The position numbers were made by a program, and so were the translations under genes. Positions 3,601 through 35,792 of a DNA stretch of 58,503 bases are shown piece by piece; position 1 is the stretch's first letter, and the number at the start of each line of letters is the position of its first letter. Under the pieces are notes generated by a model. That model saw only the letters and a program-made list of their open reading frames with translations, ran no database searches and was not told where the DNA came from. The stretch covers positions 1 to 58,503 of IMG/VR virus record IMGVR_UViG_3300032562_000025. The stretch is one strand, 5' to 3'. The stretch comes from a virus.

Positions 3601-3646
3601 AGAGGTAACGTAATTTTTACGTTAATAATATAATTACGTTACCTCT
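3601..3646. repeat. 15-bp perfect inverted repeat built from the dispersed palindrome, between convergent genes
   Basis: AGAGGTAACGTAATT (3601-3615) is mirrored exactly by 3632-3646. The left arm continues into a full CGTAANNNTTACG core (3609-3621) with the GAGGTA tail; the right arm supplies a second half-site with TTACCTC. It sits in the 80-bp gap between the rightward holin-like gene and the leftward 3665 gene, where a bidirectional terminator is expected, although the flanking T-runs are weak. Confidence 0.8.
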
Positions 3647-4359: not shown

Positions 4360-4851
4360 TCATTCTCCCTCCATCCCTTTAATCAGCATTAACAACGCTG
4401 GTGATTTGATTGTGCCGGTCAAGTTGCAATTATTACATTTTTGACGGTCTGGATTCCATTGTGCGATAGGGCATTTGATTAGGCCCCATTCCTGATGATC
4501 ATAGAGATATTGCAGGAAGTTATCGGCTTGAAGTTGAGCGTTTACAACCATTGTGGCATTTTCTTCTCTCTCCCAAATTTCATAGGCAGTTTGTCTTAAA
4601 TATTTATCCCACACTTCCGGCATCTGCTCAACAATCTTGTCGATGGTATCGTAGGATAGGCGGGAGCCAGTGAAGGGATTGTATTGAGCAGTATGCAGAG
4701 GATACGGAGTATTTGAACAATTTTTTAGTGTTCTAACACCACATGAGCAATATCTAAATTCTATTCCATCAATATCAGTTTCATATCTATCCCACTCATG
4801 CCAGCACATCCCCAGCAACTTCGCCATAAATTCTGCTTTCCAGTCGTTCAT
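4360..4851 (-). CDS. Hypothetical early protein with Cys clusters
   Basis: Start placed at 4851 (residues MNDWKAEF), directly behind CAAGGAGGATT, not at 4920. The 163-aa product has an N-terminal CWHEW, a CSCG pair and a C-terminal CNNCNLTG, suggesting zinc binding at both ends. The central part is helical and acidic. The N-terminal layout resembles phage sandwich-fold proteins of unknown role, but I cannot assign it. Its mRNA leader is the structured element at 4866-4947. Confidence 0.55.
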   Translation of the reverse strand: MNDWKAEFMAKLLGMCWHEWDRYETDIDGIEFRYCSCGVRTLKNCSNTPYPLHTAQYNPFTGSRLSYDTIDKIVEQMPEVWDKYLRQTAYEIWEREENATMVVNAQLQADNFLQYLYDHQEWGLIKCPIAQWNPDRQKCNNCNLTGTIKSPALLMLIKGMEGE

Positions 4852-4865
4852 AATCCTCCTTGAAA

Positions 4866-4947
4866 GGGTAGGGACAGGCACGTCGTGACTTGTTTTTCCT
4901 TGCTCAAGGGATGACCACACGTCTTAGTTATGCGTTTCGCCCTACCC
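4866..4947 (-). ncRNA. Structured 5' leader element A
   Basis: GGGTAGGG at 4866-4873 pairs perfectly with CCCTACCC at 4940-4947, enclosing about 66 nt. Inside is a 28-nt block (4895-4922), containing TTCCTTGCTCAAGGGA as an internal hairpin, that recurs with three differences at 18426-18453. The element lies between two leftward genes; on the minus strand its last arm is followed within a few bases by the ribosome site of the gene starting at 4851. A cis-acting regulator, RNA-processing site or attenuator is possible. No known riboswitch class recognised. Confidence 0.55.
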
Positions 4948-4953
4948 ATTTTA

Positions 4954-5178
4954 TTATTTTCTTTTTGTGCAGGAACACGGTCTGTAAAAACAGATATGTC
5001 CTCCTTTTGTGTATGGTTTACTCTTGAAACTCCCCTTTCCATAACAGAAATGACAATTAGGGTTTGGCTCTTTGTCAAGTTCCGTCATTGAATGATCTAC
5101 TTGATTGAGCAACTCCTCAAATGTCTCTTCTACTTCTTTACTCTGGAATGTGTGGATGTGCCCGCTCTGATCGTCCAT
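4954..5178 (-). CDS. Small protein with DnaJ-like zinc finger
   Basis: A 74-aa protein. The acidic helical N-terminus is followed by CHFCYGKGSF and a second cluster CFYRPCSC, the CxxCxGKG pattern of DnaJ-type zinc ribbons. It belongs to the run of small leftward genes and precedes structured element A. Probably a zinc-binding accessory protein; target unknown. Confidence 0.6.
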   Translation of the reverse strand: MDDQSGHIHTFQSKEVEETFEELLNQVDHSMTELDKEPNPNCHFCYGKGSFKSKPYTKGGHICFYRPCSCTKRK

Positions 5179-11327: not shown

Positions 11328-11433
11328 TAAGGGAAGGATGGTGTGCCGCAGATTATTATCCTCTACGCTGCCTTTCACACCACTTTCATATCGGTTTGTT
11401 GAGGAACCTACACCGATACTATCCCTTCCCTTA
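11328..11433 (-). ncRNA. Structured 5' leader element D: three-way junction
   Basis: Helix P1: 11328-11339 pairs with 11421-11433, 12 bp with one bulged C (TAAGGGAAGGAT against ATCCCTTCCCTTA). It encloses two hairpins: GGTGTG 11340-11345 with CACACC 11376-11381, extended by GCAG 11348-11351 with CTGC 11368-11371; and TATCGGT 11389-11395 with ACCGATA 11412-11418. On the minus strand P1 is followed by TTATTTTTGGGAGG and then the ATG at 11310, so it could act as a switch between termination and access to the ribosome site. It lies just downstream of the ssDNA-binding gene. Confidence 0.6.
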
Positions 11434-14904: not shown

Positions 14905-14960
14905 AACATGGCTAAGGATATGTGATCAAGGGGTAGGATTCACATTCCTTAGCTCATGTT
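14905..14960 (-). terminator. Long hairpin C (terminator-like or leader element)
   Basis: AACATG-GCTAAGGA (14905-14918) pairs with TCCTTAGC-T-CATGTT (14946-14960) with one bulge, and inner TGTGA (14921-14925) pairs with TCACA (14940-14944). On the minus strand the stem is followed by TTT, giving a run of five T with the end of the arm. It lies between the 14988 gene and the nuclease gene, so it may terminate or attenuate read-through. Its loop (minus strand CCCCTTGATCA) faintly resembles the CCCTTGAGCA of elements A and B. Confidence 0.55.
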
Positions 14961-15437: not shown

Positions 15438-15637
15438 TTTATATCTCCTTTTTGGTTTATATTCCTCAGGGAATTGCTCCCTTTTAAGGTCTCCTTTTTA
15501 CTTCTTTTCTCCTCAGTGGTAAGGAATAATTCGAGGGAATGTTTCAATAATTCGTCAAGTGTCATGCAACTCCTAACAACATAATCCTTCGCTTTAATAT
15601 ATAAATCAGTATCAATTTTTGCCTGAATGTGTCTCAT
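15434..15637 (-). CDS. Ribbon-helix-helix DNA-binding protein
   Basis: A 67-aa protein. An N-terminal strand (HIQAKIDTDLYIKAKDY) and two helices (CMTLDELLKHSLELFL) match the MetJ/Arc ribbon-helix-helix fold; the C-terminus is a basic tail. A plausible regulator of early transcription and a candidate reader of the operators in this genome. Overlaps the next gene. Confidence 0.6.
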   Translation of the reverse strand: MRHIQAKIDTDLYIKAKDYVVRSCMTLDELLKHSLELFLTTEEKRSKKETLKGSNSLRNINQKGDIK

Positions 15638-18291: not shown

Positions 18292-18378
18292 TTATCGAAT
18301 AAATTCAAGCCATAAATAATATCCTGCAATTATCCAAGATACAATTGCAATTATTATTGACCAAAATATTATCTTCAT
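18292..18378 (-). CDS. Very small single-span membrane protein behind leader element B
   Basis: A 28-aa ORF from the ATG at 18378 (GAGGTTAATTAAA upstream) to TAA at 18292. The sequence KIIFWSIIIAIVSWIIAGYY is one membrane helix. Its mRNA leader is the structured element at 18399-18482, an elaborate leader for so small a gene. Function unknown. Confidence 0.45.
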   Translation of the reverse strand: MKIIFWSIIIAIVSWIIAGYYLWLEFIR

Positions 18379-18398
18379 TTTAATTAACCTCAATTTGA

Positions 18399-18482
18399 AT
18401 TCACGACTTAAGACAAATTTAAACATTTCCTTGCTCAAGGGAAGACCATACGTACGTTTTTATTTTTGCTTAAGCCGTGAAT
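18399..18482 (-). ncRNA. Structured 5' leader element B
   Basis: ATTCACGACTTAAG (18399-18412) pairs with CTTAAGCCGTGAAT (18469-18482), 14 positions with one mismatch (G·U-type in one orientation). The enclosed 28 nt at 18426-18453 repeats the core of element A (4895-4922) with three differences. An internal hairpin CCTTG-CT-CAAGG and a TACGTA palindrome are visible. Lies between the XRE regulator and an 87-bp membrane-protein gene whose ribosome site follows within about 10 nt. Confidence 0.6.
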
Positions 18483-18487
18483 TTCAT

Positions 18488-18706
18488 TTAAACTTCCTCA
18501 ACAATGATTTTAATTTTCCTTGCAAGTAACATTCCAACAGTTGTTTTCAATGCAATTGCAATATTTTCAAGCATGAACAACGAACATTCCTTTTTGCACC
18601 GCTCAACTTCATTAATATGGGTAACGGAAATTCCAACATTAATTGCAAGTTGTTGTTGGGTTAATCCATTCATTGTCCTGAATATTTTAATATTATTCCT
18701 TACCAT
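18488..18706 (-). CDS. XRE-family (Cro/CI-like) transcriptional regulator
   Basis: A 72-aa, single-domain HTH_3 protein: IFRTMNGLTQQQLAINVGIS (recognition helix region VTHINEVERCKK) and the ENIAIAL hydrophobic helix. The size fits a Cro-like repressor with no oligomerisation domain. A natural candidate to bind the operator-like repeats of the divergent hub 1.3 kb upstream. Confidence 0.8.
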   Translation of the reverse strand: MVRNNIKIFRTMNGLTQQQLAINVGISVTHINEVERCKKECSLFMLENIAIALKTTVGMLLARKIKIIVEEV

Positions 18707-20079: not shown

Positions 20080-20108
20080 AATATATCATACAACCATGAA
20101 GATGTCAA
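20080..20108 (-). promoter_or_regulatory. Sigma70-type promoter of the leftward early operon
   Basis: Minus strand: TTGACA (20108-20103), 17-nt spacer, TATATT (20085-20080). Same spacer start (TCTTCAT) and TATGA before the -10 as the promoter at 15935. Starts the long leftward block at 20012. Confidence 0.75.
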
Positions 20109-20174
20109 TGTAATTATTAAGGTTTTGAAATGTTTATTCAGCGTGTTTTATTTAATTAAACGTCAATTTTGCAA

Positions 20175-20223
20175 TGGACAAAACCAAACATCAAACATTA
20201 TTAAACCAATTGTCCATTGTCCA
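20175..20223. promoter_or_regulatory. Left cluster of TTGTCCA operator-like sites
   Basis: TGGACAA at 20175-20181, then TTGTCCA at 20210-20216 and immediately again at 20217-20223. They lie between the leftward promoter and the AT-rich centre. The mirror-image pair is at 20570-20583. Confidence 0.55.
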
Positions 20224-20227
20224 TCAT
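20207..20227 (+). repeat. Left arm of a 21-bp perfect inverted repeat
   Basis: The 21 bases at 20207-20227 are the exact reverse complement of 20566-20586. Spacing between arms is about 338 bp. Each arm holds two tandem TTGTCCA sites. Confidence 0.9.
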
Positions 20228-20252
20228 TCGATTATATTTTAATAAATGGCAT

Positions 20253-20273
20253 CGTAAAAATTACGCTACCTCC
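20253..20273 (+). repeat. Dispersed palindrome, type I tail (hub, left)
   Basis: Core CGTAAAAATTACG (20253-20265), then CTACCTCC; continues CTCATGA. Points towards the AT-rich centre and faces the opposite copy at 20520-20540. Confidence 0.9.
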
Positions 20274-20519
20274 CTCATGACTTTACTTACTATTTATTAA
20301 GCATTTTTCCTTTTAAGCTTATCTTTTCTTAAGTGTTTTCTTTTTAACTCCTTAGTTATCATTATGACCTCTTACCTTTTTGTTATATAATATTATATAT
20401 ATATATACATATATATTAAAATGTAAAACAAATGTAATAACAATAATAACAAATTAAAACAATACAATAAATAAACAATAAACACTTAAAAGTATAACTA
20501 AGTAAAATCATGAATCAAT

Positions 20520-20540
20520 GGAGGTAACGTAATATTTACG
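20520..20540 (-). repeat. Dispersed palindrome, type I tail (hub, right)
   Basis: Plus strand GGAGGTA-A-CGTAATATTTACG; in minus orientation core plus TTACCTCC. Inverted relative to the 20253 copy, so the pair frames the AT-rich centre symmetrically. Confidence 0.9.
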
Positions 20541-20565
20541 ACATCAATTATCAATATATTTTGCC

Positions 20566-20586
20566 ATGATGGACAATGGACAATTG
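20566..20586 (-). repeat. Right arm of the 21-bp perfect inverted repeat
   Basis: Exact reverse complement of 20207-20227. Carries two tandem TGGACAA sites (20570-20576 and 20577-20583). Confidence 0.9.
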
Positions 20587-20604
20587 CAAATTGCACGTTT
20601 GACG

Positions 20605-20625
20605 TTCAATGTTCAACGTTCAACG
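20605..20625 (+). repeat. Three tandem 7-bp TTCAAYG repeats
   Basis: TTCAATG, TTCAACG, TTCAACG in tandem, 40 bp upstream of the -35 of the rightward promoter. An activator or repressor site is likely by position. Confidence 0.6.
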
Positions 20626-20664
20626 TTTGGCCTTAAAATACTCAACCATAACTTAAGAATCAAA

Positions 20665-20693
20665 TTGACAGTACCCTTAATCCATGTTATAAT
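20665..20693 (+). promoter_or_regulatory. Perfect consensus sigma70 promoter, rightward
   Basis: TTGACA (20665-20670), 17-nt spacer, TATAAT (20688-20693): all twelve consensus bases match. Expected start about 20700, giving a ~45-nt leader before the ATG at 20745. Confidence 0.85.
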
Positions 20694-33995: not shown

Positions 33996-35108
33996 GTGGG
34001 ACAAACCATGGTTGGATTAAATGATGCCAAAGCCGTCAAACGGTTTAGTTCAAGCCTTACGGTTGATGCAGCAAGAAAAGGTCAGTGGACTTCGAAGTGG
34101 ATGGGTGGAGGCCCAACTGCAACACAGCCGATTTATTCAGTACCTGATCTGGAAAATCAACGTGGGGAGCAGGTTTCGTTTGATATTTCAATGCAGCTTA
34201 ATTCACAGCCAATTGAAGGTGATGATGAGGCTCGTGGTAAAGGTGAGAAACTATTTTTCTACTCTCAGGTTGTTTATATTGATCAGGAGAGGGAAGTTGT
34301 TTCTACTGGTGGTCGAATGACTCAGAAACGTACACTTCATGATTTGAGACAGGTGGCACGCTCAAGGACGGCAGATTTATGGGGCCGTGTTTTTGACCAG
34401 ATAATTTTCATTTATTTAAGTGGAGCTCGTGGAGTAAATTCGGATTACGTCTTCCCGACGACATGGACAGGAAGGGCGAATAACTCATTAAGTGCACCTG
34501 ATTCAAATCATATCGTTTTTGGTGGAGTTGCTACTGTTAAAGGTGATATGACAGTTACGGATACAATGACCACACTTCCTATTGATAAAGCAGTTGCATA
34601 TGCAAAAATGATGGGTGGTGGAGGGCCGGCTTATTCTGAGGTTCCTCAGATTCAGCCAATTAATGAGTCAGGGGAAGAAGTATTCCTTATGGTAATGAAT
34701 CCTTGGCAGGAATTCAATTTGAGAAGGAATACAACGTCTATGGACTGGGCAGACATTCAGAAACAGATTGCAATGTCTTCAGGGAAAAATTCTGAATTTA
34801 TGAAAGGTGGCCTTGGTATGTGGAATAAGGTTGTCCTTCAGGTACACCAGAATTGTATTCAGTTCAGTGATTATGGTACAGGAAGTGATGTTGCAGCAGT
34901 TCGAGCATTGTTTTGTGGTATTCAGGCTGGAACAATTGCTCAGGGTCAGGGTGGTGGAGCAATGACTTATGGCTGGTTTGAAGAAGCTTATGATGGTGGA
35001 AATCAGCTTGATATTTATACGGATACAAAGTGGGGTTTTGTTAAGACAAATTTCAATGGCAACGATTTTGGAGTTATCGCCATTGATACTGCGGCTGCAA
35101 AACCGTAA
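33996..35108 (+). CDS. Major capsid protein (N4-gp56 / DUF4043 type)
   Basis: A 370-aa protein starting at GTG 33996, 6 nt after GGAGG. Family features: AVKRFSSSLTVDAARKG, then GEQVSFDISMQLNSQPIEGDDEARGKGE (in parts), the DQEREVVSTGGRMTQKRT block and LRQVARSRTADLWGRVFDQI. A late DYGTGSDVAAVRALFCGIQA matches the A-domain. It is the HK97-fold shell subunit and probably the most abundant virion protein. Confidence 0.85.
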   Translation: MGQTMVGLNDAKAVKRFSSSLTVDAARKGQWTSKWMGGGPTATQPIYSVPDLENQRGEQVSFDISMQLNSQPIEGDDEARGKGEKLFFYSQVVYIDQEREVVSTGGRMTQKRTLHDLRQVARSRTADLWGRVFDQIIFIYLSGARGVNSDYVFPTTWTGRANNSLSAPDSNHIVFGGVATVKGDMTVTDTMTTLPIDKAVAYAKMMGGGGPAYSEVPQIQPINESGEEVFLMVMNPWQEFNLRRNTTSMDWADIQKQIAMSSGKNSEFMKGGLGMWNKVVLQVHQNCIQFSDYGTGSDVAAVRALFCGIQAGTIAQGQGGGAMTYGWFEEAYDGGNQLDIYTDTKWGFVKTNFNGNDFGVIAIDTAAAKP

Positions 35109-35688: not shown

Positions 35689-35708
35689 TTAAAGAATGTT
35701 TGTAAATT

Positions 35709-35761
35709 GCAAAATGGGGCAGATGACGGACGTAAAATTTACGTTACCTGCCTCATTTTGC
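35709..35761 (+). promoter_or_regulatory. Composite hairpin around a palindrome copy
   Basis: GCAAAATGGGGCAG (35709-35722) pairs with CTGCCTCATTTTGC (35748-35761), 14 bp with one G·U, enclosing the CGTAAAATTTACG core at 35731-35743. No T-run follows, so it may be a regulatory or processing hairpin rather than a terminator. It lies in the 104-nt gap between structural genes. Confidence 0.6.
35731..35752 (+). repeat. Dispersed palindrome, type I tail
   Basis: Core CGTAAAATTTACG (35731-35743) plus TTACCTGCC; the tail continues TCATTTTG, shared with the 43741 copy. Confidence 0.9.
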
Positions 35762-35792
35762 ATAATCATAAAAGGAGTGAAGGAGGTTCACA

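What the first reader, a model, noticed from the sequence alone, without database searches (positions are those of the whole stretch)
4866..4947. Structured leader A shares a 28-nt core with leader B 13.5 kb away
4895-4922 and 18426-18453 agree at 25 of 28 positions (core TTCCTTGCTCAAGGGA, then GACCA-ACGT), yet the closing helices differ completely in sequence (GGGTAGGG/CCCTACCC versus a 14-bp stem) while both close the element. Conserved loop with covarying stem is the signature of a functional RNA. Both lie immediately before a ribosome site in the leftward early operon.
Basis: partly seen in the sequence, partly recalled or inferred. Interest (0 to 1): 0.72.

Follow-up and report, generated by a model that had tools for sequence, protein, structure and literature searches.

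The report
Twin hairpins in a phage operon
An uncultivated phage carries, in two gaps between genes of its early operon, hairpins with unrelated stems but an almost identical 28-base tip, which probably mark the messenger RNA for some shared control; no relative was found, so the function is unproven.

Summary
It is the best non-overlapping 28-base repeat in the window, and none of 20 dinucleotide shuffles reached it. Each core is enclosed by its own inverted repeat (A 8 bp, B 15 bp), unrelated between the two and better than shuffled flanks. A and B each fill an intercistronic gap of the leftward early operon, from the upstream stop codon to 15-20 nt before the next start. "Covariation" is not shown: the stems are not alignable, no third copy exists, and G-U pairs point to opposite strands in A and B. 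Exact-pattern scans of IMG/VR and GTDB, a covariance model on ~60 relatives and Rfam found no homologue; sister phages (70% and 48% identical DNA polymerase) lack the core. The operon has other intercistronic hairpins without the core; one gap is strongly structured in the sister phage too, with different sequence. Best reading: intercistronic mRNA hairpins, two carrying a shared tip recognised by an unknown factor. Rivals: a DNA binding site in a hairpin, or a recently copied sequence without function. A separate, stronger signal was noticed: 14 dispersed CGTAANNNTTACG palindromes (9 in the sister phage, none in 19 other records).

The parts
4866..4947 (-). Element A: enclosing stem 4866-4873/4940-4947 around the shared core; fills the gap between ORFs 4954-5178 and 4360-4851
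4895..4922 (.). Shared core, copy A (TTTCCTTGCTCAAGGGATGACCACACGT on +)
   Evidence: 26/28 identical to copy B
18398..18483 (-). Element B: 15-bp stem 18398-18412/18469-18483 around the shared core; fills the gap between ORFs 18488-18706 and 18292-18378
18426..18453 (.). Shared core, copy B (TTTCCTTGCTCAAGGGAAGACCATACGT on +)
4360..4851 (-). Gene after A, 163 aa; no Pfam/PHROG match; homologue in sister phage G001 with a 7-nt gap upstream, so no leader
4855..4861 (-). Shine-Dalgarno AAGGAGG of the gene after A
18292..18378 (-). Possible gene after B: 28-aa peptide, hydrophobic by inspection
   Evidence: no PHROG match
18488..18706 (-). Gene before B: 72-aa Cro/C1-type HTH protein
   Evidence: Pfam HTH_3 E=1e-6
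11328..11433 (-). Intercistronic structure C (10-bp stem, two inner hairpins); no shared core
   Evidence: z -3.5
14905..14960 (-). Intercistronic hairpin D; no shared core; the same gene-to-gene gap is strongly structured in G001 with different sequence
   Evidence: gap z -7.5

Best explanation
A and B are intercistronic cis-acting hairpins of the leftward early mRNA. The enclosing stem runs from just after the upstream stop codon to just before the downstream ribosome site and probably sets processing, stability or ribosome access there; only its presence, not its sequence, seems to matter. The shared 28-nt tip is probably a recognition site for one trans-acting factor (phage or host RNA-binding protein, nuclease or small RNA), putting the two downstream small genes under common post-transcriptional control. 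Shown: the shared core, the two unrelated enclosing stems, their exact placement, and other hairpins in the same operon. Inferred: transcription through them, folding in RNA, a shared binding factor, and any effect on expression.
For: Core 26/28 with non-homologous flanks; flank pairing significant for each copy; same orientation and placement in the operon; structures C and D in other gaps of the operon; the D gap strongly structured in both this phage and G001 (z -5.9 and -5.4) with different sequence; the gaps hold no obvious coding sequence, and one promoter-like site at the operon head is oriented to transcribe the minus strand.
Against: Only two copies, so no covariation test. A's fold on the operon strand is not exceptional (z -1.3), and the tip hairpin is weaker on that strand (U-G becomes C-A). 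Sister phages lack the core, and the homologue of the gene after A has no leader in G001. No RNA-seq data exist.
Confidence: 0.42

Rival explanations
1. DNA-level binding site: the dyad CCTTG-CT-CAAGG with its one-sided extension GACCA-ACGT is an operator or roadblock for a phage DNA-binding protein (for example the HTH protein encoded just upstream of B), embedded in a hairpin that helps stop or pause transcription.
For: The core centre is a perfect 5-2-5 dyad. The same phage has another dispersed palindrome family, one copy of which (35731) also sits inside a larger hairpin, 35708-35762, and G001 15556-15611 shows the same arrangement. An HTH gene adjoins B.
Against: Only two sites; the conserved block is 28 bp and asymmetric; both lie inside the operon rather than at a promoter; two independent enclosing stems are not needed for a double-stranded site.
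Confidence: 0.22
2. Recent copying: a short sequence was transferred between two intercistronic gaps (by recombination, or as a palindromic insert into hairpin loops) and has no present function.
For: Absent from all relatives. Both places are in gene-variable parts of the operon, and the homologue of the gene after A lies in the B neighbourhood of G001, so material moves between these two regions.
Against: Copying would also carry flanks, yet identity stops sharply at the core and both flanks form good, unrelated stems.
Confidence: 0.2
3. CRISPR-repeat mimic (solitary repeat unit, RNA anti-CRISPR): the plus-strand core, a hairpin followed by AUGACC, resembles a type I-E repeat.
For: Layout resemblance only (hairpin then AUGA-CC), from memory of type I-E repeats. 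About the right length.
Against: No array with this repeat in GTDB genomes (25 single hits, about the chance number, nearly all in long open frames). No Rfam match of any kind to the core. Shorter stem than type I-E repeats. No good promoter-like site near A on the plus strand, although promoters are a criterion for such candidates (PMC10651486).
Confidence: 0.04
4. Plus-strand antisense RNAs: A and B are read from the opposite strand as small RNAs against the operon.
For: A's stem and the tip hairpin are more stable on the plus strand.
Against: No good plus-strand promoter near A; B's stem is better on the minus strand.
Confidence: 0.06
5. Chance resemblance of two intergenic hairpins.
For: A 16-base exact match alone is nearly expected once in 58.5 kb.
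Against: 26/28 was not reached in 20 shuffles, and both copies are intergenic, in the same orientation and inside significant stems.
Confidence: 0.06

Closest known systems
RNase III processing sites between the early genes of phage T7 (own knowledge; no open paper on them was found in the library)
   Same: Hairpins in intercistronic gaps of a polycistronic early mRNA, with stems that vary in sequence
   Different: Here a 28-nt tip is nearly identical in two hairpins; cleavage untested; unrelated phage
Phage translational operators bound by RNA-binding proteins (for example T4 gp43 or RNA-phage coat protein operators; own knowledge)
   Same: Hairpin with conserved unpaired bases close to a ribosome site
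   Different: Core lies about 40-50 nt upstream of the start codon; no binding protein known
Racr / solitary CRISPR repeat units (PMC10651486)
   Same: Short phage-encoded hairpin of CRISPR-repeat length
   Different: No matching CRISPR array found, no promoter near A, enclosed in a larger stem
Mycobacteriophage stoperators (PMC9283540, PMC6550527)
   Same: Repeated sites inside phage operons
   Different: Only two copies of the A/B core; the comparison fits the separate CGTAANNNTTACG family better

Membership tests
Known Rfam RNA families | Covariance-model score above the gathering cutoff | tested here: not met
   No match in the whole window; only chance-level matches around A and B
Intercistronic RNase III-type processing hairpins | Long stem in a gap between genes of one operon | tested here: met
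Intercistronic RNase III-type processing hairpins | Cleavage by RNase III in the transcript | not testable with these tools
   needs transcript end mapping
Racr / solitary repeat unit | Near-identity to a CRISPR repeat of a host | tested here: inconclusive
   No array in GTDB with the exact pattern, but the host is unknown and may not be held
Racr / solitary repeat unit | Promoter within 250 bp upstream | tested here: not met
   No promoter-like site near A on either strand; only weak, chance-level sites near B
Intrinsic terminator | G+C-rich stem directly followed by a U run | tested here: not met
   A and B are not among the terminator-like sites
Leader peptide / coding sequence | Shared open frame with start codon and ribosome site | tested here: not met
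   the frame with silent differences (VWSSLEQG) closes in B after a few codons and has no ribosome site

The most novel reading that the evidence does not exclude
A new phage RNA motif: a 28-nt hairpin tip with a conserved 3' single strand, displayed on exchangeable stems in several leaders of one early operon, bound by a dedicated phage or host factor to coordinate the downstream accessory genes.
Probability: 0.15. Interest if true: 0.55.

Novelty: new variant of a known kind. Interest (0 to 1): 0.33.

Why it matters
If the shared tip is bound by one factor, this phage uses a modular RNA tag (constant tip, free choice of stem) to put accessory genes under common control, a design rarely documented in phages. 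The sister-phage comparison also suggests that intercistronic hairpins persist in the same gap while their sequence turns over, which can be tested in this phage group.

Tried and rejected
Homologues by exact pattern: TTGCTCAANNNNNGACCANACGT in IMG/VR, none. CTTGCTCAAGNNNNGACCA, 68 hits with no convincing enclosing stem (L047, the best by flank, reads through as a protein, judged by eye). AAGGGANGACCANACGT, 13 unrelated. CCTTGCTCAAGGNNNGACCA in GTDB, 25 hits, about the chance number, nearly all in long open frames. Covariance model of the core over 1.06 Mb of window and relatives: only A and B; the next hits have E of about 2. blastn to phages and plasmids: nothing credible. Relatives of the gene after A in IMG/VR by peptide pattern: none. 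A self-cleaving ribozyme was considered; no hammerhead-type core is shared by A and B, and Rfam gave none. Search by relatives in the genome search is not possible for a virus record.

Full report
Setting. The window is a virus record (G000) of 58.5 kb. A leftward operon (about 20.0 to 3.7 kb) holds an A-family DNA polymerase with a UDG domain, a DUF3987 protein, a ParB-methyltransferase fusion and many small ORFs; the rest reads mostly rightward. The nearest relative found is IMGVR_UViG_3300036884_000265 (G001; polymerase 70% identical), then IMGVR_UViG_3300005326_000051 (G002, 48%). No reference phage is close.

The observation. Copy A (4895-4922) and copy B (18426-18453) agree at 26 of 28 bases. 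They are the best 28-mer repeat in the window apart from overlaps; the other pairs at 25 or more belong to a palindrome family. One of 20 dinucleotide shuffles gave a pair at 25, none at 26. Outside the core, identity stops at once.

Enclosing pairing. A is closed by GGGTAGGG/CCCTACCC, and B by a 15-bp stem that is uninterrupted on the minus strand. With the core held out and the flanks shuffled 2000 times, A's flanks pair better than all shuffles on the plus strand and at p=0.0145 on the minus strand; B's flanks beat all shuffles on both. The stems are therefore real and independent. They are not covariation in the strict sense, because the stem columns of A and B cannot be aligned as homologous and there is no third sequence.

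Strand. The operon is read on the minus strand, but the plus strand gives A the better fold (z -3.2 against -1.3) and the tip the stronger hairpin (UUCCUU/AAGGGA includes a U-G pair that becomes C-A on the other strand). B's stem prefers the minus strand (G-U in place of A-C). The data do not choose, and a DNA-level role stays open.

Placement. Each element starts just after the upstream stop codon and ends 15 nt (A) or 20 nt (B) before the next start codon, next to a strong (A) or weak (B) Shine-Dalgarno sequence. Other gaps of the operon also hold strong structures: C at 11328-11433 and D at 14905-14960. The D gap is strongly structured in G001 too (z -5.9 and -5.4), although the sequences differ. 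Intercistronic hairpins are thus a habit of this phage group; A and B are special only in sharing the tip.

Relatives. No homologue of the core was found in IMG/VR by three patterns, in GTDB by one, in 30 related virus records by a 3-mismatch pattern, or by a covariance model over 1.06 Mb. Rfam has nothing. The gene after A has a homologue in G001 (27% identity, E 7e-14) that lies in the region corresponding to B and has only a 7-nt gap before it. So genes move between the A and B neighbourhoods, and this leader is not a fixed companion of the gene.

Mechanism. Most likely these are mRNA hairpins that separate neighbouring genes (processing, stability or ribosome access), two of which display a common recognition tip for an unknown factor. 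The chief rivals are a DNA operator in a hairpin and a recently copied sequence without function. A CRISPR-repeat mimic was tested as far as possible and is not supported. A peptide explanation is not supported: the frame in which both differences are silent (VWSSLEQG) has no ribosome site and closes soon in B; silent positions in some frame are expected because the two differences lie six bases apart.

A stronger signal nearby. The palindrome CGTAANNNTTACG occurs 14 times in the window and 9 times in G001, and in none of 19 other related virus records; the reversed control pattern occurs in neither of these two phages. Sites lie mostly between genes, including the divergent promoter region and the terminator-like repeat between convergent operons. 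Flanks differ between the two phages (CTACCTCC type here, CTAATCT type in G001). This looks like a dispersed operator network and deserves its own study.

Noticed in passing
window 3609, 10970, 13730, 16708, 17725, 20253, 20528, 22456, 25531, 32501, 35731, 43748, 52815, 56233: Fourteen exact CGTAANNNTTACG palindromes, mostly intergenic, often extended to TTACGNTACCTCC on one side. G001 has nine with a different flank; 19 other related virus records have none. Probable dispersed operators, stoperator-like.
   Followed up: partly
window 20090-20670: Region between the divergent operons: 67-nt inverted repeat arms (20207-20273/20520-20586, 81% complementary) around an AT-rich centre, with good promoter-like sites facing outward (20108-20080 minus, 20665-20693 plus) and a palindrome in each arm; z -9.9. 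Candidate control region or origin.
   Followed up: partly
window 35708-35762; L012 15556-15611: A CGTAA..TTACG palindrome sits inside a larger 15-bp hairpin in both phages, with different stem sequences: the same constant-centre, variable-stem layout as A and B.
   Followed up: no
window 14905-14960; G001 34898-35059: Strong intercistronic structures in the same gene-to-gene gap of two sister phages without sequence similarity.
   Followed up: partly
window 3601-3646: Terminator-like 15-bp inverted repeat between the convergent operons, made of operator-like palindromes.
   Followed up: no
window 18292-18378: Possible 28-aa hydrophobic peptide gene after B (MKIIFWSIIIAIVSWIIAGYYLWLEFIR), toxin-like in size and make-up by inspection only.
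   Followed up: no
G001 and G002 contig ends: Both relatives have repeats at their two contig ends, and the window maps circularly permuted onto G001, so the genomes are circular or permuted.
   Followed up: no
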